A DNA stretch of 53,989 bases from Myxococcota bacterium. GTDB lineage: Bacteria; Myxococcota_A; UBA9160; UBA4427. Positions 24,086 to 46,761 of the stretch are shown here, piece by piece. A program made the translations under genes and the position numbers. Under the pieces are notes generated by a model. It saw nothing but the letters and a program-made list of their open reading frames with translations, was not told the origin of the DNA and made no database searches. The DNA lies in NCBI GenBank assembly GCA_029268645.1, contig JAQWNI010000171.1, positions 1 through 53,989 of the forward strand. Reading direction: 5' to 3'. Positions within the stretch are counted from its first letter, which is position 1; each line of letters opens with the position of its first letter.

Positions 24086-25009
24086 CTACATCCCTCTTTG
24101 TCGGTGAAAGCGACCCATACGCTCAAGTAATCGTGTGGCGATCCAGCCGCCGTAGTATTTGAGTGATTCAATCGGCTGAATACAGTCTCCTGGCGGTCGG
24201 GGCGCCCATCCAAGCTTGCGTAGGAAAGAGTTCAACGCGTAGATCAGGGCATACCTTTTTGTGAGAGCCGTGTAGTAGACGACTCCGATCGAGATTGAAA
24301 CAAGGGCAGCCTTGCGATCAGTGTTGTCATGTCGAGGGAGAGTCCGCGACATGTGGGCCGAAGTGGATGGCATGAAGACCCCTTGTCCGGGCAGTAGGTC
24401 GTCGTGGACGACCGCTCTAGGGGCATGATGCTCTCGCCAGTTGACGTCGGCCAATGACCCCCGAACGATCCACCCTTCTACGGCCAGTTCGTCTACGGTA
24501 TTTCGGTCATTTGGATCCCATGCAGAAAATTGCTTCTGGCCTTGGATCTGAAGGAAGAAGTTGTTTTCTCGGTCTATGTGGAATGGGGTGAGCGAGGGCG
24601 GGGCTGAGATAAAAATGTAGGCATCGGAGTCAAATATAGTTTGACTTTCCTGGCCGATGAGTTGAGCCCCGGCTGCGATGACTTCGTCGATAAGTGGCCC
24701 ATACTCAGGGTCGCTACGGACTTCGTAAATGGCGATCCAGCTTCCGGGTTCATGGAGGTTGTCGAAAATATCGTCGATAGATCGACCCTGCGGAGGTTGG
24801 GTTCCCAAGATGAAGTCTGAGCCAGCCTCAGCGTTGGGGTCAATGAATTTAACTTTTCCCGTTTTCGCTGAATCGAGACGTTTGGCCAGTTCCCGAAGTG
24901 CTTGTGCACTGAGCAATGGATGGTCGGAGAATTCGTGTTCGATGCGGTTTATTTTTCGTGCATCGAAAGGGTGAGTTGACCTGATTTTGCGGTCGCCTAT
25001 GCCCGTCAT
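24086..25009 (-). CDS. JmjC/cupin-like Fe(II) oxygenase
   Basis: 307 residues. The metal triad of the Fe(II)/2-oxoglutarate cupin fold is visible as His144-x-Asp146 in TPFHIDRENNFF and the distal His219 in MPSTSAHMSR, with the typical IQGQKQFSAWDP strand between. This matches transcription-factor-like JmjC or cupin_8 hydroxylases. Its ATG overlaps the upstream hydrolase stop (ATGA), making it the last intact gene of the NRPS operon. A role in hydroxylating a carrier-bound residue or the finished product is an inference from position. Confidence 0.75.
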   Translation of the reverse strand: MTGIGDRKIRSTHPFDARKINRIEHEFSDHPLLSAQALRELAKRLDSAKTGKVKFIDPNAEAGSDFILGTQPPQGRSIDDIFDNLHEPGSWIAIYEVRSDPEYGPLIDEVIAAGAQLIGQESQTIFDSDAYIFISAPPSLTPFHIDRENNFFLQIQGQKQFSAWDPNDRNTVDELAVEGWIVRGSLADVNWREHHAPRAVVHDDLLPGQGVFMPSTSAHMSRTLPRHDNTDRKAALVSISIGVVYYTALTKRYALIYALNSFLRKLGWAPRPPGDCIQPIESLKYYGGWIATRLLERMGRFHRQRGM

Positions 25010-25917
25010 GACTGCCGAGCCTTTGGTGCCAGCGCAACAAGTTCGAACCAGTCGGTCAGGTCCTGAATCAGCCTGTTTCGGTCTTCGGTCGTCTGGAAAG
25101 TGTGACCTGTTTCCGGATAATGGGTTAAGTGAATCAAAGCGGGGCGACTAAGGTTCGGGTACAGGTCGCGTAATTGCCCAGGGTAGTTGTAGTAATTGCT
25201 CCATCCACCCGTAAATCCGTAAAAGAGATGGCAGCCTCGTTGAATTGTTTCCTCGATGTGTCGAGCAATATCATACTTGTCGGAGAGGCCTGTCCTGAAT
25301 AATTCCGGTCGCTCTTTCTCTGAGGAGCGCTTGAATGACCGGCGAAGTAGGTCTTGGATTTGCTTCGGATTGACGTTCTCTAGGCTCAGGAGGTGGTTCA
25401 TTCGCTCTCGACTACGCAGACGGGGGAGATAGTGGTTTAAGTACCATTTGGGTGTCCGGTGAACGGTGGGGTCGAGCAGGGCGGCTCCAACCACTCGCGA
25501 GTCACCGCGCGCTGCCCGGAGCGAGTTGTCGGCGCCGGAGCAGAGGCCGGCCAGAATAAAGCGAGAAACTCCAATTTTTGATTCCAGGAAGTCGAAGGTT
25601 TCTGCAATGTCGACCAATACTCCGTCGGAAAGGGTGCGACCGTCCTTCCGCGGAGGACTGTCGCCGACTCCTGCGAAGTCAAAGCGGAAGGCAGGAAGTC
25701 CGCGCATCGCGGCCGCTCTGGCCAAGCGGACATGAAGACGACTGGGGCCGGCCTTGTGAAGGATTCCCGCATTGAGAATCACTAGGCAGGGTCTATCCGT
25801 GTCAACTTTGACAGAGGGAAGCGTTAGGATCCCATTGAGGTCCGAACTGAAGCCATATTGAATGGCCCGTTCGTCGGGGGAAGTACTGCATTCAGCCGTT
25901 TGGGTTTCAGGGGTCAT
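25006..25917 (-). CDS. Alpha/beta hydrolase, exosortase-A-associated type 1 like, Cys nucleophile
   Basis: 303 residues from ATG 25917, which overlaps the upstream stop as ATGA. The fold is shown by ILNAGILHKAGPSRLHVRLA, FRFDFAGVGDS and the nucleophile elbow GLCSG, where Cys126 replaces the usual Ser. A C-terminal catalytic His is likely in ETGHTF. The HKxGPxRLxVRLAR pattern and the Cys elbow match what I remember of 'hydrolase 1, exosortase A system-associated'. In this operon it may release or edit carrier-bound intermediates, since no thioesterase domain is present in the megasynthases. Confidence 0.72.
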   Translation of the reverse strand: MTPETQTAECSTSPDERAIQYGFSSDLNGILTLPSVKVDTDRPCLVILNAGILHKAGPSRLHVRLARAAAMRGLPAFRFDFAGVGDSPPRKDGRTLSDGVLVDIAETFDFLESKIGVSRFILAGLCSGADNSLRAARGDSRVVGAALLDPTVHRTPKWYLNHYLPRLRSRERMNHLLSLENVNPKQIQDLLRRSFKRSSEKERPELFRTGLSDKYDIARHIEETIQRGCHLFYGFTGGWSNYYNYPGQLRDLYPNLSRPALIHLTHYPETGHTFQTTEDRNRLIQDLTDWFELVALAPKARQS

Positions 25918-26669
25918 GGAGCCAGGCCCGTCCATGTAGAAATGGTTTGAATCGCCCGGGCCGAAACAGGGCCGGCTCCGAAATTGCTCTCTTCAAGCCA
26001 CGGGGGAGGGGCATCGGTCTCTTCGAAAGCCATGCGTCTAAGGTTCTGTCCGATAAGCTCTCGAAAACGATCGGGAATCAGCTTGGAACCCAAGACGAGT
26101 GCCTGGTGGGGCCAAGAAGAATGACTTTCGCGGGGCTCTTTCTTGATCTCCAGAAGCATCTGCTCAAAATCTCGTACGTTTGCAGCGCCTCCCGAATCCA
26201 TTGGCACCGGTTGATCGAGCTGGCCGGTCCACTGTGCGCCCAAGACCGATTGGGAACGGAGGTCAACCGGATCCCACAAGATGAGGCCTTGAGTGTCCGC
26301 GTGTCTCAGCCCAGCGGCGGTCGCGAGGAGCGCTCCGAGCCGAAGGCCGAGAAGGTGTACGCCTTTCAGCTCGGCGATCGCCCTAAGCTCATTGATAGCC
26401 ACCCCGATGTCTTCGACCCAGTCGTTGAGTGTGACCGAATCTACGTCGCCGGCGGAGTCCCCGGTTCCCCGGTAGTCGAACCGCAGGACATGCCAACCGG
26501 ATCGAGCTAGGGAGTCCGACAGGATCCGAAAGGAACGATGTGCGCGGCTAGATTCCGACCCTAAGGGATTGCAGAGGACGACACCCTTCCCTCCGGGTCC
26601 TCGGAGGACGGGCGGATGGTAGAGGCCGTAGAGGCGTTTCCTCTCTGGACCCATAAAGAAAGGGTTCAT
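25914..26669 (-). CDS. Alpha/beta hydrolase-like, exosortase-A-associated type 2, no Ser nucleophile
   Basis: 251 residues from ATG 26669, overlapping the NRPS stop as ATGA; an in-frame GTG at 26750 would lie inside the NRPS. The fold markers are VLCNPLGSESSRAHRS and LRFDYRGTGDS. The elbow reads GLRLG with Arg110 where the Ser/Cys nucleophile belongs, a pattern I recall for 'hydrolase 2, exosortase A system-associated'. So it is probably a pseudo-hydrolase or a binding partner of the next gene product rather than a classical thioesterase. Confidence 0.7.
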   Translation of the reverse strand: MNPFFMGPERKRLYGLYHPPVLRGPGGKGVVLCNPLGSESSRAHRSFRILSDSLARSGWHVLRFDYRGTGDSAGDVDSVTLNDWVEDIGVAINELRAIAELKGVHLLGLRLGALLATAAGLRHADTQGLILWDPVDLRSQSVLGAQWTGQLDQPVPMDSGGAANVRDFEQMLLEIKKEPRESHSSWPHQALVLGSKLIPDRFRELIGQNLRRMAFEETDAPPPWLEESNFGAGPVSARAIQTISTWTGLAP

Positions 26670-29600
26670 GAAAGCTTGCCTTCTCGGGGTGCCCGCATCG
26701 CGATCTGTCGCAGGGTCTGGAAAAAGAGAAGTCTCGGGCTGAACGACCAACCGGTAAGGCTTTCAACTTCTTGAATAACGCGTAGCGCTTGGAGCGAAGT
26801 CCCTCCCAGTTCAGCGAACGAATCGTGAACGCTCACCCGATCCACGCCCAGGAGGTCTTGCCAAATGTGAGCGAAAGTTTTCTCTATAGCGGATTGAGGC
26901 GCTTCGAAGGCCGCGACGGTTGTTTTGCTTGGATCTGGAAGAACGCGAGAACGGACTGCGCCTCCTTTGTCTCGGGGAATGTTGTCGACTGGTAGAATTA
27001 TCCCGCCGAGAGATTGGTCTTTTAACTCACGGGCAAGGGCGTTTCTCAGGGTTGTGGACGTCGGTTCGCGGTCACCGTTGTAGGCAACCCATGTAATCAA
27101 TCTACTGTCCCCGGTCGAGCTAGGGCGGGCTTCAAGGTGAGCATCATCAACGAAAGAGAGGGCTTGAAGGGCTTTTTGAAGTCTCGGGATGTCGATCCAT
27201 CCTCCTTGTGCCCAGACGAGCCCGTCCTGTCTTTCCGAAATATTGAGATCTCCATGAAGTGTCCAGACGGCCCGCCAAGGTGTATTGAAGGGAAGGGTGT
27301 CCCCCAGCTGACTCAAGACAAGCTGACCGGGAATGCCGGGAGGAAGCTCAAGCCCATTACTGTCGATGACACGCGATTCGAAGCTTGGAGCTGGCCCGCC
27401 GGCGAGGGGTTCTCCAGAAGGCGGATTCTCGCTCCGAGGGAAAAGAAGGCCCCAGTGGCCGGTCGAGAGACTGCCGCCAACGTGCCAGGTGCCTTTGGAA
27501 GCGGTTGGGAGGTCGATCTGGAGCCTTTGCGTCAGATCGCCGTGGATCCAAAGCGAATCGAGTCGATTGCCGGCGGTGGCTCCAGGGAGCGCATAAAGGA
27601 GGGCCCCGCCGGTTTCGATACTCGTCGGCTCCAGATGCATGATCCAAGCCCGCAGACGCAACTCATCCACGGCGCAATTCTCGGTTGGAGTCGCCAAGGT
27701 CGCTCCGCTGGCTAGGGCACTGAGTACGGCGGGGGCGAATGCCGGATCATCAGGGCAGAGCAGCATGAGATAACGGTCTCCGGGACCCAGCCCCTGGGCG
27801 CTCTGTCTGCTTTCTAGGACGACTTCCAAGGTTTCCAGAGTGATTGATTGGGTCGATGAGGAGACGGGCCCTACCAGCTGACAGATGTGAGCAGAGGATG
27901 CGCGACGGCTTACTCGAAAAGCTTCCGTGCAGGAGCTTTCTGTAAAAGAGTCAAGGCTCCAGGATGGGACTCGTATATTCCGATCTGCGATCGATGAGTC
28001 GTGGAGAAGAGCACGGCCGCCAATCTGTTCGATCCAGTCGTTTATAGATTTTTCTGGAATGGAGCTGGGAATTGGTGCCCAGCATGCTCCTGCTCGAAGA
28101 ACACCGAGTAAAGCGATGATAGACTCGGGCGAACGTTGCATCTTGATCGCTACGGAATCCCCTTCTTTGACTCCAGATTCCAAAAGCGCACGCGTAATCT
28201 CCAAAGATCGAGCATGCAGAAGTCCTCGATCCCACGTTCCCCGCTCACTTTCAAGTGCCACTGTCGCAGGAATTTCAAGGGCCCGCGTCAGACGATCTGG
28301 ATCAAGCGTTCCGCCAGGGCGAGCATGATTCCACTCCCGCAATTGGCCTCGTTCTTTCTCAGTCAAGAGAGAATGCTGAGAGATGGGTTGGTCCGGAGCT
28401 GAGACCGTACGCTCGAGAACTTGCAGAAGCCACCCAATAATTTTTTCAATGCGCTCCGCCTCGTAAAGGTCGGTTCGATAGTCTATGGCACCCGAAAGGG
28501 TATCCCCGGCGTCGCGAACCCAAAGGTTGAGTTCCGAATGTGTCGCATGGAAATCCTGCGGGATCTGTTCCACCTCAAGCTCCCCCCAGTGGGTGAGCCG
28601 GTCCCCGGTATTCTGGTAAGAAAAGTTGATCTGGAACAGGGAGCTATCTTTCAATTCTCCCGGCATGGCCCTCAGGAAGTCATCGACAGGGCACGCCTGA
28701 TGACTCATGGCCTCGAGGCTAATCTCCTTGACTTTGCGGATCATCTCGCGGAATGAGACCCCGGGTTTCCAGTCGATTCGGAGAAAGAGTGTGTTGGTAA
28801 AGGGGCCAATGACGCCTTCGAGATTGCTCTGGTCTCTGCCTCGGACCGGAGTGGTGATTGTAACGTCGCTTTCGTTGGCCATTCGCCCGACCAAGATGGA
28901 CCAGATGGATAACAGCAACATGTAAACCGTAACGCCTTCACTCCGAGCGAGGTCGGACAGGCGTGCCACAAGATTATCGCTGAGTGAAAAATTAAATCGG
29001 GCACCGGCATGATTGGCTTGCTCGGAGCGTGGATGGTCGGTTGGGATAGGCAATGTTCTCAGACCACCGTAGAGGCGCTGTTGCCAGAAGAGCAAATCTT
29101 CTCGGGCCCGTTCGCTTTGGCCTCGGGCCCGTTGCCAGTAGGCGAAGTCTTCGTAGCGGAGAGCCGGTCGAGAAATTCCAGTTTCCTCTTGGAGGCAATG
29201 CGCCCGATACAGGAGGCCCATGTCCTGCAATAGGATGTCAAAGCACCAACCATCCCAAGCAATCGAATGACTCACAGCGTAAATTGCATGTTCTTGGGGG
29301 CCGAGACGAGCAAGGTACAACCGAAGCGGTGGCTCGCTCGATAGATCAAAAGGAATGCGGGCCATGTCTTCGAGCCATTGTTGGAATTCTGCGTTGCGCC
29401 TTTCCTCGGGCAAGCTCGAAAAATCGATTCGTTGAAGAGGAATCTCGAGTTTAGGATCTTCTTGGCTTGTGACCCGTGACGCTTCTTCAAAAAATCGAGT
29501 TCGAAGCATCGGGTGCATATCAACGAAGTCTGATAGAGCAGCCTGGAGGGCCGTTCTATTCAGTTTGCCTCGAAGGCTCCAAGCTCCTGGTAGATTGTTT

Positions 29601-29890
29601 TCGCCCGATTCCGGGCGAATCTGCTCCAGCATCCAAATTCGTTCCTGAAAGGGCGAGAGGCAACCATCGGCCTGGGGCCCCACCGCAAGGACCGGTGTTT
29701 CTGCGGTCGTTGACTCGGACTTGGCTTCTCGAAGGATTTCAAGAAGATCCACTTTGGCTGCCCTGATTTCACCGCCGAGCGCCTCGTCGATCGAACCTTT
29801 TGGTGCATCAACGATTAGGCGATCGTCCTCCGCGCGGATTCGGATGTCTCGGGCGGCTAGAGCCTTGAGAAGAGCAGCGGCCGACCTCAA
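26666..29890 (-). CDS. NRPS module: TubC docking-C-degenerate A-PCP
   Basis: 1074 residues from a TTG start with GGAGAGGG 7 bases upstream. Residues 1-55 resemble the TubC N-terminal docking domain (LLKALAARDIRIRAEDDRL). A condensation domain spans about 75-510; its HHxxxDG motif reads HSIAWDG, so the catalytic second His is Ser209. The adenylation domain (about 535-970) keeps the overall outline (ALLGVLRAGACWAPI) but has lost the phosphate loop (LVGPVSSST in place of YTSGSTGxPKG), the RTGD and GRxDxQVK boxes and the A10 lysine. The carrier domain is intact (LGGTSL, Ser1032). There is no thioesterase. It overlaps the next hydrolase gene. Confidence 0.88.
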   Translation of the reverse strand: MRSAAALLKALAARDIRIRAEDDRLIVDAPKGSIDEALGGEIRAAKVDLLEILREAKSESTTAETPVLAVGPQADGCLSPFQERIWMLEQIRPESGENNLPGAWSLRGKLNRTALQAALSDFVDMHPMLRTRFFEEASRVTSQEDPKLEIPLQRIDFSSLPEERRNAEFQQWLEDMARIPFDLSSEPPLRLYLARLGPQEHAIYAVSHSIAWDGWCFDILLQDMGLLYRAHCLQEETGISRPALRYEDFAYWQRARGQSERAREDLLFWQQRLYGGLRTLPIPTDHPRSEQANHAGARFNFSLSDNLVARLSDLARSEGVTVYMLLLSIWSILVGRMANESDVTITTPVRGRDQSNLEGVIGPFTNTLFLRIDWKPGVSFREMIRKVKEISLEAMSHQACPVDDFLRAMPGELKDSSLFQINFSYQNTGDRLTHWGELEVEQIPQDFHATHSELNLWVRDAGDTLSGAIDYRTDLYEAERIEKIIGWLLQVLERTVSAPDQPISQHSLLTEKERGQLREWNHARPGGTLDPDRLTRALEIPATVALESERGTWDRGLLHARSLEITRALLESGVKEGDSVAIKMQRSPESIIALLGVLRAGACWAPIPSSIPEKSINDWIEQIGGRALLHDSSIADRNIRVPSWSLDSFTESSCTEAFRVSRRASSAHICQLVGPVSSSTQSITLETLEVVLESRQSAQGLGPGDRYLMLLCPDDPAFAPAVLSALASGATLATPTENCAVDELRLRAWIMHLEPTSIETGGALLYALPGATAGNRLDSLWIHGDLTQRLQIDLPTASKGTWHVGGSLSTGHWGLLFPRSENPPSGEPLAGGPAPSFESRVIDSNGLELPPGIPGQLVLSQLGDTLPFNTPWRAVWTLHGDLNISERQDGLVWAQGGWIDIPRLQKALQALSFVDDAHLEARPSSTGDSRLITWVAYNGDREPTSTTLRNALARELKDQSLGGIILPVDNIPRDKGGAVRSRVLPDPSKTTVAAFEAPQSAIEKTFAHIWQDLLGVDRVSVHDSFAELGGTSLQALRVIQEVESLTGWSFSPRLLFFQTLRQIAMRAPREGKLS

Positions 29891-29921: not shown

Positions 29922-32900
29922 TCAGAACGAGACCTCTTCACGATTTTTTGATTCGCCGCGGTCCAGCGAGACGCCTTGGCCCAATACTCCGAGAGCATCG
30001 ATGTATTCAGCCAATGCGGCCAGTCCAGGGGTGGCAAAAATTCTTCTGAGGGGGAGTTCAACACCCATCCGCTCACTGACTTGCGCGACCACGCGAGTCG
30101 CTAGGATTGAATGGCCTCCGAGGTCAAAAAAGTCTTCGTCGGCACCGACTTGGTCAACGTTCAGCACCTCGCTCCAGATCAGTGCGAGTTCTCGTTCGAC
30201 GCCGGGCGCGGGCTCTCGGTATTGTCTTCCCGCATCTTGGTCGACGTCGGGCAGAGGCAACGCCTTTCTGTCCGCCTTTTTGTTGGGCGTCAGGGGAATC
30301 GAGTCGAGGCTGATGAAGTGCTGCGGAACCATATAGGCGGGTAGTCGCTGCCCGAGGTGCGCTCGCAGAGCCGATGCATCAGCCAGCCCAGACGCAGCCG
30401 AGACGCAATAGGCAGCAAGGCGTGTATCGCCCGGATCCCGTTCGTACACCATCACCACCGCTTCAGCTACAGAAGGGTGGTCGGCCAAGGCAGATTCGAT
30501 TTCGCCAAGTTCGATTCGATAACCCCGGACCTTGACTTGGCTGTCGAGTCGGCGGCTGAAGACAAGCCGGCCTTTCGTGTCCCATCGTACGAAATCTCCC
30601 GTTCGATAGAGCCGGTCTCCAGCGCGGAAGGGGTTGTCGATGAAGCGCTCCTCTGTCAGTTCGGGCTTTCCGAGATAACCGAGCGTCAGGCCTTCTCCAC
30701 CGATGAAGAGTTCTCCGGGTACACCCACTCCAGTGGGTTCGAGGTTGTTATCCAAAACGTAGACTTGTGTGTTTCCAATCGGTTGACCGATTGGCACAGT
30801 CGTTTCCTCGCCGTTGAGCTCGTGCAACGTCGACCAGATCGTGGTTTCAGTCGGGCCATACATATTGAAGACCCGTGCGGCCCTCGCAGACAGCTCTTTT
30901 GCAAGGTCGGCGGGAAATGCCTCGCCTCCGCAGAGGGCGGTGAATCCTGAACCACCACGCCATCCTGATTCCGAGAGCAGACGCCATGTTGCGGGGGTGG
31001 CTTGCATTGTGCTGGCGTGACTTTGTTCGAGAAGTTTTCGGAGCGCTCGACCGTCACGGGTTTCCGCCTCGGTCGCCACGATCGTGCAAGCCCCAACGGT
31101 TAGGGGAAGGAATAGTTCCAGTACTGAAATGTCAAATGAGAGAGTGGTCACGGCCACTAGTCTGTCCTGCGGACCGAGTCCTGGATTTCGAGCCATCGTT
31201 TCTAAGAAATTCACCACGGCTCGATGCGGCACTTCGACGCCCTTGGGGGTGCCCGTCGAACCCGATGTGTAAATCACATAGGCCCGAGCGTCTTCGTCGG
31301 AGGGCTGGTCCACGGACCGTTGACGGAAGCCCTCGCTGGGTACTTCATCCACGAAGACGGGGCCACCAAGTCGGACTTCGGGCAGGCTTTCAGCGAGGGA
31401 CCTAGTCGTCACCAGGGTCGCTAGATCAGAGTCCTTGACCATATGTCGGATGCGCTGTGGGGGGAATTCTGGGTCGAGAGGCACATAGGCCGCACCGCAT
31501 CTCCAGATCGCAACGGCTGCCACGACCATCTCGATCGAGCGCTCGAGGGCGAGGCCGACGAGGTCGCCCGGTCGAACTCCGATTTCCATCAATCGGTTCG
31601 AGAGAACCAGAGAGTCTTCTTGGAGGGCTCGATAAGTGATGCGATCGTTTCCACATTCGAGCGCGATGGATTCGGGGGTTCGCTCCGCTTGGCCAAGGAT
31701 GATTTCGTGAATTTTAACTGAAGCATCATGGGGCTGTGCTGTCTTGTTCCACGATTCCAAGACAAGCGAGCGTTCATCTGCAGCAACCGTCGGGAGTCGT
31801 CCAATTTCTATTTCGGGTTGATCCGCGACCGTTCGTAGTAGCACCTCGAAGCCAGCGAGCCTGCGGCGTATTGATTCGGAGTGGAAAAGGTTTGTGTTGT
31901 ACTGCGTTGCAATTTCCAAACTGCCCGCAGATTCTGTGAGATTGATGAAGATTTCGAAATTTTCAAAGGCTCGTGGGTTCGATCGAAATTCAACTTCGAG
32001 GTCAGGGAAACCGAGCTTCTCGGGATCGATGGATTGATCGAGGTTGAACTGGATGGGAACTACTGGGACGCGACTGGGATCCCGTGTCATGGGGATCTGT
32101 TTGAGCAGGCTTCCGAAGGTGTACTCCTGGTGGTCGAAAGCGTCCAGAAGAGCGGACTGAGTTTTGGCCAGAAGTTCGGAAAAACTCTCGCCCCACTGGA
32201 TGTGACTTCGAACTGGGAGCAAGTTTACGCAATGCCCGACTACTCCCGGCAAGCCAGCTGCGGATTGGCCTGCGGCGGGAATCCCTGTGACGACATCCCC
32301 GGCACCGGTCAATCGGCTTACGTAGGCCTCCCAGGCAGCGAGGAGAAGTGCAAAAAAACTGACTTTGTGCTTAGCGGCGACATCCTTTAGATCGGAAACC
32401 AAGGTTTGGTTGATCCGCGTGTCGATTCGAGCAGATTCGAAAGTGCGAAGTGCGGGGCGCGGCTCATCAGTGGGCCAGTCGAGGACTGGAACATCTCGGT
32501 GAAATTTTTGAATCCAGAATTCGCAGGTTTCAGTGTCGTCGATTTGCGTGAGTCGATCAGCGTATGCGCTGAAGGGCGTTGCAGGGGGAAGAGTGAGGGG
32601 CGACGCAGAGTTCGTGGTCAGTGCGTAGAGGCTACCCAAGTCTTTTAGAAGAACGGCCGTCGACCAACCATCGCAGACGATGTGGTGAGCGGAAATGATG
32701 AGCTCCGAGAGTGAGTCAGATAATTTGACCAACCAGAATCGAGCCAGTGGGCCATGCTCGAGATCGAATGGTCGTTTCACAGCTTCATGGATTAGCGACT
32801 CCAGCGCTGACGAATTGTGATCCGGACCCTGTGCCGACCAGTCCCTTGAAGTCACGTCAGCAACGCCCACTGGGGCCACGCAAAGTGTTTCGCCGTCCGG

Positions 32901-33155
32901 GCTCAAGGTAGTCCGCAGAGCCTCGTGTCGTTCCACCAAGAGCTCAAGCGCCCGAAGCAGAGCTGGCATGTCGAGTTCGCCCTTGAACCGAAGCGAAACC
33001 GACTCATTAAAAGCGCAGTTTGCGTCGTCGCCCAGCTGGGCCGCTGTCCAGATTTCCTTCTGGGACTCTGTGGCCGAGATGGTCCTGGAGAGTTCGCCCC
33101 CTGCGAATGGGTCGAAATCAACGGGAATTAAGTCGTGTTGGTCCTGCTCACTCAT
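29922..33155 (-). CDS. NRPS module: C-A(Gly)-PCP
   Basis: 1077 residues. Condensation domain about 20-450 with intact HHIVCDG (His157, His158, Asp162). Adenylation domain about 480-960 with YTSGSTGTPKGVEV (629-642), YRTGDFVRW, GRLDSQVKVRGYRIE and NKKADR. The pocket residues I read are D-I-L-Q-L-G-M-I-W-K, one position from the published glycine code DILQLGLIWK, so glycine is predicted. Carrier domain with Ser1016 in LGGHSI. It is the third synthetase of the operon and ends 31 bases before the last one. The upstream donor would be the carrier of the ACP-aminotransferase protein. Confidence 0.92.
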   Translation of the reverse strand: MSEQDQHDLIPVDFDPFAGGELSRTISATESQKEIWTAAQLGDDANCAFNESVSLRFKGELDMPALLRALELLVERHEALRTTLSPDGETLCVAPVGVADVTSRDWSAQGPDHNSSALESLIHEAVKRPFDLEHGPLARFWLVKLSDSLSELIISAHHIVCDGWSTAVLLKDLGSLYALTTNSASPLTLPPATPFSAYADRLTQIDDTETCEFWIQKFHRDVPVLDWPTDEPRPALRTFESARIDTRINQTLVSDLKDVAAKHKVSFFALLLAAWEAYVSRLTGAGDVVTGIPAAGQSAAGLPGVVGHCVNLLPVRSHIQWGESFSELLAKTQSALLDAFDHQEYTFGSLLKQIPMTRDPSRVPVVPIQFNLDQSIDPEKLGFPDLEVEFRSNPRAFENFEIFINLTESAGSLEIATQYNTNLFHSESIRRRLAGFEVLLRTVADQPEIEIGRLPTVAADERSLVLESWNKTAQPHDASVKIHEIILGQAERTPESIALECGNDRITYRALQEDSLVLSNRLMEIGVRPGDLVGLALERSIEMVVAAVAIWRCGAAYVPLDPEFPPQRIRHMVKDSDLATLVTTRSLAESLPEVRLGGPVFVDEVPSEGFRQRSVDQPSDEDARAYVIYTSGSTGTPKGVEVPHRAVVNFLETMARNPGLGPQDRLVAVTTLSFDISVLELFLPLTVGACTIVATEAETRDGRALRKLLEQSHASTMQATPATWRLLSESGWRGGSGFTALCGGEAFPADLAKELSARAARVFNMYGPTETTIWSTLHELNGEETTVPIGQPIGNTQVYVLDNNLEPTGVGVPGELFIGGEGLTLGYLGKPELTEERFIDNPFRAGDRLYRTGDFVRWDTKGRLVFSRRLDSQVKVRGYRIELGEIESALADHPSVAEAVVMVYERDPGDTRLAAYCVSAASGLADASALRAHLGQRLPAYMVPQHFISLDSIPLTPNKKADRKALPLPDVDQDAGRQYREPAPGVERELALIWSEVLNVDQVGADEDFFDLGGHSILATRVVAQVSERMGVELPLRRIFATPGLAALAEYIDALGVLGQGVSLDRGESKNREEVSF

Positions 33156-33212: not shown

Positions 33213-35285
33213 TCAGGAAACGCGTAAATAATGATTTGGTCGATTGGGATCTGGCACGTACCAGGCTGGTTGCCCTGAGGGATCTTTGCCTAGGCGTGCG
33301 CCCGGGACGGGCGGCTCTTTAGGAATATCGGGAACTGATGCGGTGACCGATCGCAACCGAGGCTTTGCTGCCGGATAGAAACCGTATTCGATCATTTTGG
33401 CGACACTGCGGCGAAATGCTTCTACCATGAGTTCGATTTCTGCCTCTCCGTGGGCCAAGGTGAGGTAGGAAGGGAAACCCTGCTGGAGATAGATTCCTTC
33501 GAGGCGGAGGAAATACCAGAGAAGGCCGCCCAATTCGCTTTCGTCGAGATTCCGCAGATACATCACTGACGCGAAATGTGATAGCTCGACTGGCGCAGCA
33601 TGCTCCTTGAATATGGCGTTCACTCTGTCCGCAAACTGGGCGGTTTTCCGGTTGAGGTCCTCTTGGAGCTCCGGTCCCTCCTCCTTCAAGAAGACGAGCA
33701 TCGCATGCGCCGCAGCGATGGCGAGTGGATGGCGAACGAAGGTGCCGGCAAAGAACGTGACTCCCGCTTCTGGCATCGAGTCGTCACCGTATTGCCACAC
33801 GCCCCCATCAAAGGTGTCCATGACGTCGCTTCGGCCGGCGATGATTCCCATGGGCATGTTCGCGCCAGCGACCTTTCCGTAGGTGGCGAGGTCGGCCGAC
33901 ACATCAAAGTAGCCCTGCGCTCCAGCGGGGTGGCAGCGAAAGCCCGTGACGACCTCGTCAAAGATGAGTAGAGATTCGCACTGCTGGGTGATCCCGCGGA
34001 GAGTGTGGAGAAAATCACGAGGCTGGAGCTCGGGCCTTCGGCTCTGAACAGGTTCGACCAAAACGGCTGCGAGCTTGGGTCCCAATCGTTCGATCACGCG
34101 CAGGGATTCATCTTCGCCGTAGGGTAGGACGACGATATCTTGGACGGCCCGCTTGGGGATGCCAGGGGCTGCGGGGAAAGTGAGTGGTTTGTCGAGGTCA
34201 GATGTACCGCGGACGATCACTTCGTCGAAGTTGCCGTGATAGCTTCCGCTGAAGACAACGATTTTACTCCTTCCAGTGAAAGTGCGGGCGCATCGGATCG
34301 CAGCCTGGACGGCCTCCGAGCCGGTGCACACGAAGCTTGCTCGATCAAGGCCTGTTAATTCGCAAACCAGCTCCGCTGTTTCTCCAGCCAGGGGCGTTTG
34401 CGGACCGACCTCGATGCCGCGATCCAATTGCGTGCGGAGGGCGTCGAGGACGCGCGGGTGGGCGTGGCCGAGGAAGTTGGGCCCGAAGCCATTGAGCAGG
34501 TCGATATAGATGTTGCCATCGATATCTTTTAGGCGCGCTCCTTCCGAGTGCTCAACCACAATCGGATAGACCATCTCCTTCCACGCCCGATGAAAGAGCG
34601 AAGCCGTTCGGGGGTCCGCATGGTGTGCGCGATGCTTTTGAACATGGTCCCGAGACCGGCGGGTGCGATCCACGTACTGTTCGATCAGGTTCTCCAAACC
34701 GAGCCTTCGGTGCTGGTCGAGTTCATCAATTTGGTCGATTCGAAGCGGGCGGTCGTCTCCTCGGCGAGGTTGGACAGGCTGCGGTGGGGCGCTTGCCGTC
34801 TTCCTTGGCTGTGAGGGCAGCGTCGAGGGTGGACTCGGAGCAGCCGCCTCGCTGTGCAGCGTATCGCTTTGGTCCGCGTCTGGTGCTGCGCGCAACGTCT
34901 CGAGTTGTTGTTTCATCAACTCGAGCTGCTTGGCAATGATGGTTTCAATTTCTTGGCGATTGTTTGCGGGCGGACCCGAAGTCGATTGCAGAGCCGAGGG
35001 GGGTGTTTCGGGTGAGGTCTGATTGCATGTGTTAGCTGAGGTGGGGACGTGCGGTGCGATATGCCTCGCCAATGCGTTGATGCTGTTGTGTTCCTCAATG
35101 AGCGAGCGCAGTTTGACATCGATGCCAAAGATGGACCGGATCTCTTGAGTTAGCTGAGTCAGAGAGAGAGAGTCGAAACCCAGTTCGAGAAAATGGACGT
35201 CCGGTGAGAGCTCGGAACCTGACACGCCAGAGAGTTCACTAAGGAGGCTCTGGATGCGGACGGTTAGAGTTTCATTGGGGGGCAT
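33213..35285 (-). CDS. PKS-type ACP fused to class III aminotransferase
   Basis: 690 residues, with AGGA 9 bases before the ATG. Residues 1-80 are an acyl carrier domain with Ser39 in LGFDSL. A linker (80-200) contains a coiled coil (IAKQLELMKQQLETL) and a Pro-rich stretch. Residues 200-660 are a glutamate-1-semialdehyde-aminomutase-like aminotransferase: TGSEAVQAAIRCART, IFDEVVTGFR with Asp443, and the PLP lysine Lys471 in TYGKVAGANM. The end YVPDPNRPNHYLRVS is typical of AMT domains in mycosubtilin-type synthases. It should convert the carrier-bound beta-ketone into a beta-amine before transfer to the glycine module. Confidence 0.9.
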   Translation of the reverse strand: MPPNETLTVRIQSLLSELSGVSGSELSPDVHFLELGFDSLSLTQLTQEIRSIFGIDVKLRSLIEEHNSINALARHIAPHVPTSANTCNQTSPETPPSALQSTSGPPANNRQEIETIIAKQLELMKQQLETLRAAPDADQSDTLHSEAAAPSPPSTLPSQPRKTASAPPQPVQPRRGDDRPLRIDQIDELDQHRRLGLENLIEQYVDRTRRSRDHVQKHRAHHADPRTASLFHRAWKEMVYPIVVEHSEGARLKDIDGNIYIDLLNGFGPNFLGHAHPRVLDALRTQLDRGIEVGPQTPLAGETAELVCELTGLDRASFVCTGSEAVQAAIRCARTFTGRSKIVVFSGSYHGNFDEVIVRGTSDLDKPLTFPAAPGIPKRAVQDIVVLPYGEDESLRVIERLGPKLAAVLVEPVQSRRPELQPRDFLHTLRGITQQCESLLIFDEVVTGFRCHPAGAQGYFDVSADLATYGKVAGANMPMGIIAGRSDVMDTFDGGVWQYGDDSMPEAGVTFFAGTFVRHPLAIAAAHAMLVFLKEEGPELQEDLNRKTAQFADRVNAIFKEHAAPVELSHFASVMYLRNLDESELGGLLWYFLRLEGIYLQQGFPSYLTLAHGEAEIELMVEAFRRSVAKMIEYGFYPAAKPRLRSVTASVPDIPKEPPVPGARLGKDPSGQPAWYVPDPNRPNHYLRVS

Positions 35286-35322: not shown

Positions 35323-38300
35323 TTATGTTTTCTTGAGGAGAGCAAGCTGCTGTTCAATTAGGTCTAACTGGTTCTCGATGAGCACTGTGACGGAGCTCTC
35401 TGTTGAATCGACCCTTTGAATCGGGCGGGTGGCGCTTTGAGAGGCGGCGTTGATTTCGATCCAATGGCGTTTCCTCTGGAACGGGTACGTCGGGAGCGAC
35501 ACCCGGCGTTTCTCTTGTGCCGCAAAGAAAATTTCCCAGTCGAGATCGACGCCTAGTGTCCAGAGGCGACCGACTGCGTTGAGAAAAGAAGAGGGCTCCT
35601 GCTCAAGGTCGCCCGCCGCTTCGAGGGTCGATACGACGCGCTGCCCCAACTCGGGCCCGCCGGTCTGTCGGGCAAAAGTACTCGTCGTATTGCGTGGGCC
35701 GACCTCTAGGAAGACCTGGTCCGGGGCGACCTCTCGCGCCGTCCGAAGGGCGTCTGCGAACCGTACCGGTGACCGGGCATGACGTGCCCAGTAATTCGGG
35801 TCTTGCGCTTCGTCCGGCGACAGGGCCCTGCCTGTGGCCGTAGAAATAATGGGCAGTGTCGGGGCATTGAGACTTTTTCGAGCCACCTGCTTCCGAAAAG
35901 GTTCAATGATGGGATCCATCATCGCGGAGTGGAAGGCGTGCGAGGTGTGGAGAATTTGATTCACCACGCCCAGGCTCTCCAATTCCACGCTCAGGGCGTC
36001 AATCTGTGAGGAAGGGCCGGAGACGACCGACAAGATCGGTGAATTTTCGCAGGCGAGAGAGAGGCCGTCGGGGAGAATGGCCTTGAGCTCTTCAGCGCCC
36101 ATTCTCGCCGAGAGCATTGAGCCTGCGGGCATTGACTCCATCAGGCGCCCACGTTCCGCGACCAGAACGAGGGCTTCCTCTAAGGACATTACGCCCGCAA
36201 GGCATGCAGCCGTGAACTCTCCCACGCTATGCCCGATCATCGCGGTTGGCGTGATTCCTAAACCCATCCAGAGGCGAGCTAGGGCGTATTCGATGCTGAA
36301 AATAGCCGGCTGTGTAAAGGCTGTTTTTTGGAGCGTTTTGGCTGCTGCGGTTTCTTGACCCAATTCGGGGTGAAGCAGGCGGATCAGATTGAGCCCGCAG
36401 TGTTCTTGGAGGATGGCCGCGCAGGCGTCCAGGGCTTGACGGTAGAGGGGCTCAACGGCGTAGAGGCCTCGACCCATGTGCGGAGATTGGCAGCCCTGGC
36501 CTGGGAAGAGGAAAACCACGCCTGGTGGCCTTTGGGGCGCTTCGGACCGGCGAACTCGAGGTCCAGGCCCATCGCCTCGGAGTAGCTCGGCGGCCGAATT
36601 GTGGTCCGGGGCGACAAAAAAACTTCGATGAGAGAGGGGCTTTCGGCCGATCGCCAAACTCCAGGCGACGTCGCCAAGACCCTCGGCACTTTCAGATTGG
36701 AGATATTGAGCGAGCTTGCTTTCGAGCGTTTGGCAGCGGTCTGGGTTTTGGCCGGAAACGAGCAGAAGGTGTGCGGGTCGCCGAGTCGGCTCGCAGCGGG
36801 GCTGATCCCAGTATTCTTCCAGGATCACGTGTGCATTGGTGCCACCCACGCCGAAGGAACTGACCCCGGCTCGGCGAGGTGCATTGTGAGTATTCGTCCA
36901 GTGCATGGTTTGTTGAGAGACGAAGAAAGGAGTCTTCTCGAAGTCAATCTCGGGATTTGAGGATTCAAAGTGGAGGCTCGCCGGAATCTTCTGGTGTCGA
37001 AGGGCTAGCGCCGTCTTGATAACGCCCGCGACGCCCGCTGCGGCGGTGAGGTGGCCAACGTTGCTCTTGACCGAGCCCAATGCACAAAATTGAGTTCGCT
37101 CAGTGCTTTCCCGGAAGGCTTGAGTGAGCCCAGCCACTTCAATCGGATCACCGAGGGGTGTGCCCGTACCGTGGGCCTCGACGTAAGAGATATCTTCAGC
37201 AGAAAGGTCTGCCTGCTCCAGAGCCATTGCGATGACGCTCGCTTGGCCTTCAATGCTCGGAGCTGTGAAGCTTGCTTTATCAGCTCCATCGTTATTCACG
37301 GCTGCGCTTCGGATCACCGCGTGAATGGTATCGCCATCCTCTACCGCATCGGTCAATCTTTTGAGAACCACCATTCCGGCGCCGTCACTGAATACCGTTC
37401 CGGTGGCGTCAGCATCAAACGGCCGGGTGTGCCCGTCTACGCTCTGCATGCCCCCTTCAAGGTGAAGGTGACCACTCCGAATGGGCGCTGTCACGGCCAC
37501 GCCACCGGCCAATGCGATGTCGCATTGGCCTGCTCGGAGCGCATGAAACGCTTGAGAGATCGCGACCAGGGAGGTCGAACAGGCACTCTGCACGTTGACC
37601 GCCGGTCCCTTGAGGTCCAGCTTGTGAGCCACGCTGATCGGGGCGTAGTCCTTGTCGTTCACCAGGCGTGCTTGAAGAGTGCCCACGGACTCTGAAAGGT
37701 CAGGTCTTTTCCACAAAAAATTGGGTTGGTAGGTGTTGTGAACGACGCCACCGAAAATTCCAATCAGGTTTTCACATCGTGAAGGGTCGATACAGGCATC
37801 TTCGAGAGCAGACCATGCGGTCTCGAGAAAAACGCGTTGCTGTGGATCCATCACTTGCGCGAGTCGTGGGCTGACGCCGAAGAATTCCGCGTCGAAGCAA
37901 TCCCCATCCTCAAGGATTCCTCTTGCGGCTACGTAATGGTCTGCAGTGGTCTCACGCGGGTCGTTGCCGGGGTCGAGCTCGTCCGTCTCGAAGAAAGAAA
38001 TTGACTCACGGGCCTCGCATAGATTGCGCCAAAAAGACGGCACGTCCGCTGCCCCTGGAAAGCGCCCGGCCATACCCACAATGGCGATTCGCTCGAGAGC
38101 GCTGTTGTCTTGCCGGCCGTTCCGTCTGGTCCGGCCGGAACGACTCCCCTGCTTGACCCATTCCGCCAAGTCGAGGGCTGTCGAGTGTTGAAAAACTCGA
38201 ATGGGCGGAATCTCGATGCCGTGCCGCCGCTTCATTTCCTCTACGAAGCGCAGAGCCAGCAGAGAGTTGGCCCCGAGATCGAAAAACGAGTCCGTTGACG

Positions 38301-40068
38301 CCAGTCCGTCACGGTCGAGAATTTCCGCCCACAAGTTGGTCATTTGGGATTCGAGGGAGTGACCCGATGCCCCCCCACGATGGCTGGTTTCTGCTCGTTG
38401 GGCTGGGAGCGCACCTCGGTCGATTTTTCCATTTGGGTTCATGGGCATCCGTTCGAGGATCACCCACTCGTCGGGAAGCATGAAGTGGGGTAAGCGAGCG
38501 TTCAGGAAATCCCGCAGCTCCTCTTGGCTTGGGGGGTGGCCTTGCAATGGACCGGTGATGTAGGCGATGAGTTTGCGCGACTCACCTCGGAGGGGAGCAA
38601 TGACTGCGACATCTCGCACTTGGGGGTGTGAGGAAATGGATGATTCGATTTCGCCGGGTTCGATGCGGTAGCCCCGGACTTTAATCTGTCCATCGACTCG
38701 CCCGATGAATTCGAGAAGTCCATCTGGTCGCCAGCGGACTAGGTCACCGGTCCGGTAGCATCGGGCTTGCGGATGATCGGAGAAAGGATCGGTGACAAAC
38801 GACTCATCGGTGCGCTTTGGTTGATTCAAGTAGCCGGTGGCCAGGCCGTCTCCACCGGCATACAACTCGCCGGCTTCTCCAACGGCAACTGGATTCATGT
38901 GCTCATCGAGGACTCGAATCCAGCTATTGGCAATGGGTCGGCCGATCGGCACGGAATCGCCGACCTCATCCCCTGGCTGGAGAACGTGGCAACAGGTAAA
39001 GGTCGTGTTTTCCGTCGGCCCGTATCCATTGATGAGCCGACTACCGGGGGGCATGGCCTCGAGGACTCGACGCACCCGCTTCGGGGACAAAACATCGCCC
39101 CCAGCCAACAATTGCCTTACTCCGGCCAGCGCATCGGGGAAGTAATCCGCCATTTCATGAAAGAGCGCGGCGGTCAACCAAGCCGTCGTAATTTTCCGAG
39201 TCGCGAGAAATGCGGATAGATCCTGGAGAGACTGAATACCGCTTGGGAAAAGATGGAGCTGCGCGCCGTGGAGTAGGGCTGACCAAATTTCAAAAGTCGA
39301 GGCGTCAAACCCCATAGGGGCGAAGCAGAGAATTCTTTCCTCGACACCCCACTGTGCAAAATCGTTGTTCTCGACAAGGCGAAGGATCGCACGGTGCGGA
39401 ATGCACACTCCCTTGGGTTCACCGGTGGAGCCCGACGTATACATCACGTAGGCGATGTCGAGTGGGCGCCGGTCGACCAGGGGACGCCCCGCCGATACGT
39501 CTCGAAGCCAGGAGCTGCCGGGATCGACAGAAAAACACTCCAACCGAACTCCAGGTGGGAGGGCGCCGTGGAGGGTCTGGCAGCGGCCGCTGCCGGCTTG
39601 ATTCGTCAAGATTGTTTCGAGGTGAGCTTGCTGAAGGATTTGCGCCAGGCGGGCGTCTGGAAAGCTCGGGTCCAGGGGGACGTAGGCTGCCCCGGTCTTG
39701 AGGATGCCGAGAATCCCAGCGAGCATTTCCGGCGATCGTTCCAGGCAGATCCCGACGAAGTCTCCGGTTCCGATGCCGTGGCTCAAGAGCCCGTTCGCGA
39801 TTCGGTTCGCCCAGGCCTCTAGCTCGGAATACGGAATTCGTGTTGCAGCCCAGAGCGCCGTGGCGGTCGGGGATCGGTCCGCTTGTTGTTCGAAGCAAGT
39901 GGCGACATCGGAATCCCGCGGGTAGCTAGAGGAGCGTCCGTTCCATTCTGAGGGCACAGGCATGGGGCTGGCGGTCGGCCCCCGTGACTCGAACTCCGCC
40001 GATTCCGGCGACGGGATGGAGTTGGGCTCCGTGGTCGGGGGCGGCATGTTATGACGGTCAGTAGACAC
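35323..40068 (-). CDS. Hybrid NRPS-PKS: A-PCP-KS-AT
   Basis: 1581 residues from GTG 40068 (GAGG 10 bases upstream; a frame open further upstream is less convincing). Adenylation domain about 50-560 (YTSGSTGEPKGV, YRTGDLVRW, GRVDGQIKVRGYRIE, NGKIDR); pocket residues D-A-F-W-L-G-G-T-F-K, close to the valine code DAFWIGGTFK. Carrier Ser602 (LGANSL). Ketosynthase with Cys830 (QSACSTSL), EAHGTGTPLGDP and KSNVGHL. Acyltransferase with Ser1281 (GHSVGE) and HAFH, the malonyl-type motif. No ketoreductase or dehydratase. A C-terminal coiled coil (NQLDLIEQQLALLKK) is a likely docking element to the ACP-aminotransferase, 37 bases downstream. There is no starter C domain, so this is the loading protein. 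Confidence 0.92.
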   Translation of the reverse strand: MSTDRHNMPPPTTEPNSIPSPESAEFESRGPTASPMPVPSEWNGRSSSYPRDSDVATCFEQQADRSPTATALWAATRIPYSELEAWANRIANGLLSHGIGTGDFVGICLERSPEMLAGILGILKTGAAYVPLDPSFPDARLAQILQQAHLETILTNQAGSGRCQTLHGALPPGVRLECFSVDPGSSWLRDVSAGRPLVDRRPLDIAYVMYTSGSTGEPKGVCIPHRAILRLVENNDFAQWGVEERILCFAPMGFDASTFEIWSALLHGAQLHLFPSGIQSLQDLSAFLATRKITTAWLTAALFHEMADYFPDALAGVRQLLAGGDVLSPKRVRRVLEAMPPGSRLINGYGPTENTTFTCCHVLQPGDEVGDSVPIGRPIANSWIRVLDEHMNPVAVGEAGELYAGGDGLATGYLNQPKRTDESFVTDPFSDHPQARCYRTGDLVRWRPDGLLEFIGRVDGQIKVRGYRIEPGEIESSISSHPQVRDVAVIAPLRGESRKLIAYITGPLQGHPPSQEELRDFLNARLPHFMLPDEWVILERMPMNPNGKIDRGALPAQRAETSHRGGASGHSLESQMTNLWAEILDRDGLASTDSFFDLGANSLLALRFVEEMKRRHGIEIPPIRVFQHSTALDLAEWVKQGSRSGRTRRNGRQDNSALERIAIVGMAGRFPGAADVPSFWRNLCEARESISFFETDELDPGNDPRETTADHYVAARGILEDGDCFDAEFFGVSPRLAQVMDPQQRVFLETAWSALEDACIDPSRCENLIGIFGGVVHNTYQPNFLWKRPDLSESVGTLQARLVNDKDYAPISVAHKLDLKGPAVNVQSACSTSLVAISQAFHALRAGQCDIALAGGVAVTAPIRSGHLHLEGGMQSVDGHTRPFDADATGTVFSDGAGMVVLKRLTDAVEDGDTIHAVIRSAAVNNDGADKASFTAPSIEGQASVIAMALEQADLSAEDISYVEAHGTGTPLGDPIEVAGLTQAFRESTERTQFCALGSVKSNVGHLTAAAGVAGVIKTALALRHQKIPASLHFESSNPEIDFEKTPFFVSQQTMHWTNTHNAPRRAGVSSFGVGGTNAHVILEEYWDQPRCEPTRRPAHLLLVSGQNPDRCQTLESKLAQYLQSESAEGLGDVAWSLAIGRKPLSHRSFFVAPDHNSAAELLRGDGPGPRVRRSEAPQRPPGVVFLFPGQGCQSPHMGRGLYAVEPLYRQALDACAAILQEHCGLNLIRLLHPELGQETAAAKTLQKTAFTQPAIFSIEYALARLWMGLGITPTAMIGHSVGEFTAACLAGVMSLEEALVLVAERGRLMESMPAGSMLSARMGAEELKAILPDGLSLACENSPILSVVSGPSSQIDALSVELESLGVVNQILHTSHAFHSAMMDPIIEPFRKQVARKSLNAPTLPIISTATGRALSPDEAQDPNYWARHARSPVRFADALRTAREVAPDQVFLEVGPRNTTSTFARQTGGPELGQRVVSTLEAAGDLEQEPSSFLNAVGRLWTLGVDLDWEIFFAAQEKRRVSLPTYPFQRKRHWIEINAASQSATRPIQRVDSTESSVTVLIENQLDLIEQQLALLKKT

Positions 40069-40244
40069 GGGTTGCCTCGCGTCCTCGGGGAATTCGAGCC
40101 CCGAAACGATGTTTTCATCAAGACGGATGCCAGAGCATCCCTGCCCGGTCGCGATCCCGGGTCTCTCTCCCCAGGTTCTCTTGAGCGGACTCACAAGTAA
40201 GGGGCCAGCGTGCCGCAAAAGGTAACAGAAACAACGCCGAACAA

Positions 40245-42180: not shown

Positions 42181-42840
42181 ATGAGCGACCATGCAGCCCA
42201 AGGGCAGGAGAATCTACGAAGCTACGTTCCTGCCGGTCAGCCTAACGTAAAAGGTGCAGCTTCTCGCGAAGCCATCCTAGAGGCGGCCCGCGAAATCCTT
42301 GGGACGAAGGGCCTGGGCGGCTTTAGTTTGGCGGCCGTGGCTCGGGCAGGTCGATGCAGTAAAGGAACGGTTCTTTATCACTTTGGTACCCGAGAGGGAT
42401 TGTTGATCGCGCTGATATCCGAGGGCGCCAATTTCTTTCGTGCGACGCTCGAGTCGGCTTTTTCGCGTTACGAGTCAGAACAGGGTGGCATCGGGGAGTC
42501 GATTCGGGGAGCCATGACGGATCTCTTTCGATCTGAAAACAAAATGCTCCTTTCTGCGGAAAGAGAACTCAGTGGAATGGGTCAACGGGATGAGGCGATC
42601 GCAGCGGAACTCCGCAGCGGGGTCGCTTCCTTGATTGAATCGATCGCCCGTTTTGGAGATTCCATTTCACTCGGCCCAGACTATGAAGATTTAACCGCGC
42701 GAGCGCTCTGTATGGTGACGGCGACATTTGGTCACGTCGAGCTCTGGCTTTGCTCGGGTGGGGGCGACCCGGCTCCTCATCGAGAGGCGGCCATTCGAAG
42801 TGCTCGAGCCATCGCCTTGGAAGGGATCGGGCCTCTCTGA
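42181..42840 (+). CDS. TetR/AcrR family transcriptional regulator
   Basis: 219 residues. The N-terminal DNA-binding domain reads ILEAAREILGTKGLGGFSLA then AVARAGRCSKGTVLYHFGTR, with the YHFGTREGLL recognition helix end. The C-terminal ligand domain is not specific. It follows the diiron gene by 73 bases and precedes a P450 by 68 bases. It probably binds the palindrome at 40911 and represses the series until a ligand is bound. Confidence 0.93.
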   Translation: MSDHAAQGQENLRSYVPAGQPNVKGAASREAILEAAREILGTKGLGGFSLAAVARAGRCSKGTVLYHFGTREGLLIALISEGANFFRATLESAFSRYESEQGGIGESIRGAMTDLFRSENKMLLSAERELSGMGQRDEAIAAELRSGVASLIESIARFGDSISLGPDYEDLTARALCMVTATFGHVELWLCSGGGDPAPHREAAIRSARAIALEGIGPL

Positions 42841-42908
42841 AGCCGGCCCTTGTTCTTCCTAGGGCCCCACTCGTTCAGGCGCCCCAACCCCAAAGGACGT
42901 GCGAATAC

Positions 42909-44081: not shown

Positions 44082-44142
44082 ACAGCGGTGCTGTCTTGCG
44101 CCATCTCTCGACCCGTGATGTGCTCTTTTCGAGGTCATCCGT

Positions 44143-45348: not shown

Positions 45349-45383
45349 GTTTTCTCTCTGTGACGGCGGGCTAGGGTTTGATC

Positions 45384-46301: not shown

Positions 46302-46341
46302 AAGATCGTTTCTGTGGCGATGCACCAGCGAATGGAGAAAG

Positions 46342-46761
46342 CTATTCCGCTGCAATTCGATCTTGAATGATTTGAGGGGTGCGAAGCAGCAGGTCTCCGG
46401 AGGTATTGACGGTGACCAATTTGGTGAACCCAGTTGCGCAACGCCGCTCTTCTTTTTGGCTGCTGATCTCGTACGCGATAAAGAGGCTGTGCGTATATTC
46501 CTGGATCCAGGCGGAAATCCCGAAAGATTCAGCATAGGCAAGGGGATGTATGTGCCGGCAGTGGCTTTCGATGACCAGAAATCGATAGTTGAGTTCGAGT
46601 AAGTTCTGTCCGTCGAGGCGCAAACCTCGGAGTAGCTGAGTCCGAGCCAATTCGAAATATTTGTAGTAGTGACCATGCCACGCGATGCCGAGAGGGTCTG
46701 AGTCGTGGAATGGCACTTCGTGTTGGATGTGAATCTGGTGCAGGCGCCGAGAGTTCGTCAT
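46342..46761 (-). CDS. Hotdog-fold acyl-CoA/ACP thioesterase
   Basis: 139 residues. HEVPFHDSDPLGIAWHGHYY followed by KYFELART is the conserved YbgC/4-hydroxybenzoyl-CoA thioesterase N-terminus, with the catalytic Asp in DSDPLG. It is last of a minus-strand trio after a halogenase-like flavoprotein (97 bases upstream) and a FabG-like reductase. Such a thioesterase often releases acyl chains in aryl-polyene and resorcinol clusters. Confidence 0.85.
   Translation of the reverse strand: MTNSRRLHQIHIQHEVPFHDSDPLGIAWHGHYYKYFELARTQLLRGLRLDGQNLLELNYRFLVIESHCRHIHPLAYAESFGISAWIQEYTHSLFIAYEISSQKEERRCATGFTKLVTVNTSGDLLLRTPQIIQDRIAAE

What the first reader, a model, noticed from the sequence alone, without database searches (positions are those of the whole stretch)
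26981..28288. Decayed adenylation domain kept inside an otherwise intact NRPS
The domain holds its place and rough length but has lost the phosphate-binding loop, the RTGD and QVK boxes and the A10 lysine, while reading frame and flanking C and PCP domains are preserved. That pattern suggests selection for structure rather than decay of a dead gene. The PCP must then be loaded in trans, or the module acts as a relay or release station.
Basis: partly seen in the sequence, partly recalled or inferred. Interest (0 to 1): 0.8.

Follow-up and report, generated by a model that had tools for sequence, protein, structure and literature searches.

The report
Dead adenylation domain in retained NRPS module
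One module of a bacterial peptide assembly line keeps an amino-acid-activating domain that has lost its catalytic motifs but is still held under selection, and related bacteria have discarded the opposite activating domain of the same two-module unit, which suggests that one activating domain serves both modules.

Summary
Residues 535-970 of the 1,074-aa protein at 26666-29890 (- strand, TubC_N-C-A*-PCP) are an adenylation domain without the P-loop, A5, A7, A8 and A10 motifs. The only ortholog found (MAG TMED88, 69% identity) has the same losses, no frameshift, and A* nonsynonymous change far below synonymous change (pN 0.225, pS 0.74). So A* is catalytically dead by motif but maintained.

The informative result is comparative. 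Orthologous C1 and C2 domains (100/100 clades) occur in Bdellovibrionota and in the window's phylum. Three loci carry C-A-T-C-A-T with both A domains intact. Fourteen Bdellovibrionota loci carry C-T-C-A-T-TE: module 1 has no A. The window genus carries C-A-T / C-A*-T: module 2's A is dead. The surviving A has nearly the same pocket code in every case (DILQLGM(I/V)WK, glycine by recall). Best explanation: the intact A of module 1 loads both PCPs, as shown elsewhere for SidD and CmnA/CmnI. The mechanism is known; the reciprocal loss is, to my knowledge, a new variant. A non-elongating module 2 remains the main rival.

The parts
26666..29890 (-). Module 2 protein, TubC_N docking - C2 - A* - PCP (1,074 aa)
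   Evidence: ORF; Pfam; ortholog 69% identical in L020
29726..29875 (-). TubC_N docking domain (residues 6-55)
   Evidence: Pfam PF18563, 34 bits; 83% identical to ortholog
28340..29662 (-). C2 condensation domain (residues 77-517)
   Evidence: Pfam PF00668, 291 bits; groups with C2 domains of all related lines at 100/100
29249..29269 (-). Altered C2 active site HSIAWDG (second His replaced by Ser)
26981..28288 (-). A*: degenerate adenylation domain (residues 535-970)
   Evidence: same losses in L020
27842..27871 (-). Remnant of the A3 phosphate-binding loop, GPVSSSTQSI
   Evidence: alignment
26699..26872 (-). PCP2, with intact phosphopantetheine serine (LGGTSL)
   Evidence: Pfam PF00550, 41 bits
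29922..33155 (-). Module 1 protein C1-A1-PCP1 (1,077 aa), all core motifs present
   Evidence: Pfam; HHIVCDG, TSGSTGTPKG, YRTGD, QVKVRG
30276..31691 (-). A1, intact adenylation domain with pocket code DILQLGMIWK; proposed to load PCP1 and PCP2
   Evidence: TIGR01733 435 bits, one of only two hits over the curated cut-off in the genome; code
33213..35285 (-). ACP - class III aminotransferase (beta-amination step)
   Evidence: Pfam
35323..40218 (-). Loading and PKS protein A0-PCP-KS-AT
   Evidence: Pfam; A0 code DAFWLGGTFK
25914..26750 (-). Alpha/beta hydrolase with GLRLG in place of GxSxG
   Evidence: conserved next to the module in L020
25006..25935 (-). Alpha/beta hydrolase with GLCSG (possible Cys nucleophile); candidate release enzyme

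Best explanation
A* is a catalytically dead adenylation domain kept as a structural part of the second elongation module of a PKS/NRPS line (A0-T-KS-AT / ACP-aminotransferase / C1-A1-T1 / TubC_N-C2-A*-T2). The only intact elongation A, A1 in the adjacent gene, loads its amino acid (glycine by pocket code) onto T1 in cis and onto T2 in trans, with the docking domain bringing the two proteins together. C2 then joins the second residue and a discrete hydrolase releases the product. The line descends from a C-A-T-C-A-T ancestor with near-redundant A domains, so either A could be lost: Bdellovibrionota deleted A1, the window genus let A2 decay in place. Shown here: motif loss, constraint, orthology of the C domains, the reciprocal distribution of A domains and the shared pocket code. 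Inferred: loading of T2 by A1, competence of C2, glycine, the ancestral state, the release step and the scaffold role.
For: Motif loss in both species. Constraint: A* pN 0.225 against pS 0.74, omega about 0.08-0.16 with dS near saturation, one indel in the module. C1 and C2 form two clades at 100/100, each holding every locus, so the modules correspond. Three loci (L080, L083, L093) have both A domains; fourteen (L021, L022, L024, L026, L084-L092, L094) have C-T-C-A-T-TE with no A in module 1, seen as about 520-545 aa between C motifs instead of about 1,040-1,065 where they share a polypeptide and one AMP-binding match in L026 against two in L080, L083, L093. The surviving A has DILQLGMIWK in the window and DILQLGM(I/V)WK in the Bdellovibrionota; L093 has DILQLGMVWK twice and L080 has DILQLGMVWK and DITQLGVVWK. 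Only A0 and A1 pass the NRPS A cut-off in the genome. Experimental precedents: the SidD A1 domain loads T1 and T2 past a dead A in module 2 (PMC10192304); CmnA-A1 loads CmnI in trans (PMC12400406); albicidin and others have an inactive A complemented in trans (PMC8949500). Altered C motifs are commoner with small acceptors (PMC8097023), and an HQxxxDM C domain is active (PMC11546977).
Against: C2's second His is Ser, and its C6 and C7 motifs are also eroded, so it may not condense. No loading was measured. Only two species carry A*. The A tree cannot place A* (very long branch) nor separate A1 from A2. L083's A1 has a different code (DISDITGVWK), so the two residues are not always alike. The genome is 83% complete and holds a third NRPS A domain on contig C186.
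Confidence: 0.6

Rival explanations
1. Module 2 no longer elongates. C2 lost its catalytic His and A* died together; the module persists as a docking, relay or release platform, for example receiving the chain or presenting it to a hydrolase, and the product is one residue shorter than in relatives.
For: C2 reads HSIAWDG in both species, where the 17 other C2 loci read HH; C6 and C7 motifs are eroded; the integrated TE of the Bdellovibrionota is absent and discrete hydrolases follow.
Against: The PCP serine, C1/C4/C5 motifs and docking domain are conserved, and C2 evolves about as slowly as C1 (pN 0.154 against 0.147). Some C domains tolerate loss of the second His, and one active C has Gln there. 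No known C domain moves a chain thiol to thiol without an amine (own knowledge).
Confidence: 0.25
2. T2 is loaded in trans by an A domain outside the pair: A0, the C186 enzyme, or one missing from the incomplete assembly, as with stand-alone A-T proteins in albicidin or syringomycin.
For: Genome 83% complete; a third NRPS A domain lies on C186.
Against: No stand-alone NRPS A-T protein was seen near the cluster. Relatives always keep one A in the module pair, with the glycine-like code, which is best explained by sharing within the pair.
Confidence: 0.1
3. A dying gene caught early, with no current function for A* or the module.
For: A* changes faster than A1 (pN 0.225 against 0.154), with low conservation around the old P-loop (40% identity).
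Against: 64% identity and no frameshift where neutral drift gives about 11% identity and many stops.
Confidence: 0.05

Closest known systems
SidD / Nps6 fusarinine C synthetase (fungal; dA in module 2; PMC10192304)
   Same: Two-module NRPS, dead A in module 2, the module-1 A loads both carriers with the same residue.
   Different: There the dead A lacks about 290 N-terminal residues and the line is iterative. Here the domain is near full length with motif loss, on a separate docked protein, in a bacterial PKS/NRPS line.
Capreomycin CmnA-A1 / CmnI, viomycin VioI (PMC12400406)
   Same: Bacterial; one A loads a second module's T in trans.
   Different: CmnI has no A domain at all; here a dead A is retained.
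Albicidin, cystobactamid, ramoplanin, enduracidin (PMC8949500)
   Same: Inactive A inside the line, judged by low conservation of core motifs in albicidin, complemented in trans.
   Different: Complemented by a dedicated stand-alone A-T protein, none of which is seen here.
Bdellovibrionota lines L021, L026, L084 and others (found here; no product known to me)
   Same: Orthologous C1/C2, same PKS-aminotransferase front, one A for two elongation modules.
   Different: Opposite A lost, by clean deletion; integrated TE; loading A with another pocket code (DVQ-type).

Membership tests
Catalytically active NRPS adenylation domain | A3 phosphate-binding loop (T/S)SG(S/T)TGxPKG | tested here: not met
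   GPVSSSTQ-SI; GSAFSPPQ-SI in L020
Catalytically active NRPS adenylation domain | A5 (Y)GPTE and A7 (Y)RTGD | tested here: not met
   VGGSLS and FNTPW at those columns
Catalytically active NRPS adenylation domain | A8 QVK(I/V)RG and A10 catalytic lysine | tested here: not met
   LVWAQG; Ala at the A10 column in both species
ANL fold (structural membership) | Overall adenylation domain fold | tested here: inconclusive
   AlphaFold2 pLDDT 65.8; Foldseek top hits are all NRPS modules (5u89, E 2.9e-38), but the model is weak and intact A domains were in its alignment
Dead or missing A module loaded by another module's A (SidD/CmnI kind) | A lost or inactive while the PCP serine is intact | tested here: met
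   (inactivity judged by motif, not assayed)
Dead or missing A module loaded by another module's A (SidD/CmnI kind) | An intact A elsewhere in the line with a suitable specificity | tested here: met
   A1 DILQLGMIWK, nearly the code of the A that remains in A-less relatives; glycine assignment is from memory
Dead or missing A module loaded by another module's A (SidD/CmnI kind) | Competent condensation domain in the recipient module | tested here: inconclusive
   HSIAWDG instead of HHxxxDG
Dead or missing A module loaded by another module's A (SidD/CmnI kind) | Measured acylation of the second PCP | not testable with these tools
   needs intact-protein MS
Pseudogene | Frameshifts, stops or neutral dN/dS | tested here: not met

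The most novel reading that the evidence does not exclude
Module 2 (HS-type C2, A*, T2) has been turned into a non-elongating, docked carrier station with A* as pure scaffold, after reciprocal A-domain loss in a bimodule whose A domains were interchangeable.
Probability: 0.2. Interest if true: 0.7.

Novelty: new variant of a known kind. Interest (0 to 1): 0.48.

Why it matters
If A1 loads both carriers here and A2 does in the Bdellovibrionota, one family of orthologous assembly lines offers a natural experiment: the same two modules with both A domains, with only the first, or with only the second. It would show which carrier and docking features allow inter-modular loading, and that module counts cannot be read from A domains. 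It would also warn genome-mining pipelines, which would call this line one residue short or the module broken.

Tried and rejected
Placing A* by tree: the A* branch is about 7-10 changes per column and the attachment is not trustworthy; A1 and A2 do not separate, and L080's two A domains group together (98/92), which suggests exchange. dN/dS as an exact value: dS is near or at saturation (pS 0.66-0.76), so I rely on pN against pS and on neutral simulation. More A* orthologs: none recognised in 90 genomes of the window's class nor in 377 drawn from its phylum, apart from G000 and G001. Plasmid records gave only generic NRPS matches. A paper supporting the glycine code: the string DILQLGLIWK is in no held paper. 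'A* is an active divergent A': rejected, since nearly all ATP, Mg and substrate ligands are gone in both species. 'Assembly artefact': rejected, since a separate MAG has the same module.

Full report
What is there. The minus strand carries A0-PCP-KS-AT (35323-40218), ACP-class III aminotransferase (33213-35285), C1-A1-PCP1 (29922-33155), TubC_N-C2-A*-PCP2 (26666-29890), then two alpha/beta hydrolases and a cupin-like protein. The finding's coordinates are residues 535-970 of the last NRPS protein. Pfam recognises only the first 90 residues of A* (61 bits), against the whole domain at 279 bits for A1.

Check of the observation. Aligned with intact A domains of related lines, A* lacks the phosphate-binding loop, A5, A7 (with a deletion of about 25-30 residues before it), the A8 lysine and the A10 lysine; it keeps A2 in part and the Arg and Asp of A8. 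At the ten pocket columns it reads PAPELIVHWA, which is no recognisable code. The ortholog in MAG TMED88 (L020, also G001; 69% identity over the module) has the same losses.

Decay or maintenance. Between the two species A* has pN 0.225 and pS 0.74; A1 has 0.154 and 0.67; C2 has 0.154 and 0.76; T2 has 0.178 and 0.69. Synonymous change is near saturation, so exact ratios mean little. Neutral simulation at d = 1.6, the dS of neighbouring genes, gives 11% identity (maximum 15%) and 19 stops in the stretch, against the observed 64% and none; the whole module has one 1-aa indel. A* therefore evolves faster than A1 but under clear constraint, weak around the former P-loop (40%) and strong in stretches such as the region before the old A7 (84%).

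C2 reads HSIAWDG in both species. By equal-length alignment the first His is kept and the second, usually called catalytic, is Ser; relatives read HHxxWDG, or HHAIFDG in L093. Positions of the C6 and C7 motifs are also changed. Whether this kills C2 is open: a review says mutation of this His does not always abolish activity, and an HQxxxDM domain is active (PMC11546977); altered motifs are commoner when the acceptor is small, and fuscachelin C3, which accepts glycine, reads HHxxxDE (PMC8097023).

Comparative evidence. A profile of C2 found strong matches in 16 of 368 genomes of the phylum of G377 (a Halobacteriovorax MAG, Bdellovibrionota) and weaker ones in the window's phylum. I examined 19 loci. 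In the tree of C domains, C1 and C2 are two clades at 100/100, each with one member from every locus, so module 1 and module 2 correspond across them. The A domains do not: L080, L083 and L093 have both; fourteen Bdellovibrionota loci have no A in module 1, with C followed directly by T; the window and L020 have an intact A in module 1 and A* in module 2. Pocket residues of the surviving A are DILQLGMIWK in the window and DILQLGM(I/V)WK in the A-less relatives; L093 has DILQLGMVWK in both modules, L080 DILQLGMVWK and DITQLGVVWK, while L083's first A differs (DISDITGVWK). That this code means glycine is from memory; no held paper prints the string I searched.

Mechanism. In each of the two lineages two C-T modules share one functional A, and it is not the same one. 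The simplest account is that a pair of near-redundant A domains allowed either to be lost because the other could load both carriers. In the window this is A1 (29922-33155) loading T2 in trans, with the TubC_N domain as a plausible connector. In the held genome only A0 and A1 pass the curated NRPS A cut-off; a third A domain on C186 is interrupted, and the assembly is 83% complete. A* is probably kept because a C domain and its A domain form a structural platform; that is inference, helped by the report that the SidC A2-T2 construct was unstable without its C domain (PMC10192304). The AlphaFold2 model of A*-T2 is of modest quality (pLDDT 65.8); its Foldseek neighbours are NRPS modules, but intact A domains were in its alignment, so it does not prove the fold.

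Known or new. Loading of a second carrier past a dead or absent A is experimentally known (SidD, SidC, CmnA/CmnI) and dead A domains complemented in trans are known or proposed (albicidin, ramoplanin, enduracidin). The window is thus a new case of a known mechanism. What I have not seen described is the reciprocal loss of A domains in one orthologous bimodule, and the pairing of a dead A with an HS-type C domain. My literature search was limited to one open-access library.

Limits. Two species only for A*; the ancestral state is by parsimony, not by a rooted tree; no biochemical data; codes read by alignment.

Noticed in passing
G000:C186:5278-7839 (L006, L098, L100): A third NRPS A domain in the same genome is interrupted by what looks like a bacterial luciferase-like monooxygenase domain between A4 and A5, behind a formyltransferase-like N-terminus; other motifs intact. 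Domain names by eye, not by profile.
   Followed up: partly
25914-26750: Alpha/beta hydrolase next to the NRPS has GLRLG instead of GxSxG in both species, so the serine nucleophile is missing; its neighbour at 25006-25935 has GLCSG (Cys). Both resemble exosortase-associated hydrolases (TIGR03101, TIGR03100).
   Followed up: partly
24086-25009: Cupin_8-like protein with an HID motif and a distal His, conserved beside the NRPS in L020; possible hydroxylase of the product.
   Followed up: no
35323-40218 and L021, L022, L026, L084-L094: The loading A domain has another pocket code in the window genus (DAFWLGGTFK, valine-like by recall) than in the Bdellovibrionota (DVQFTAHVVK-type, proline-like by recall), so the starter seems to have been exchanged.
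   Followed up: partly
42750-48508: Two cytochrome P450s, a fatty acid hydroxylase-type protein and a Trp-halogenase-like FAD enzyme lie upstream; not tested whether they belong to the cluster.
   Followed up: no
L080 (G331): The two A domains of L080 group with each other (98/92) although their C domains do not, which suggests exchange between A1 and A2 within a line.
   Followed up: partly
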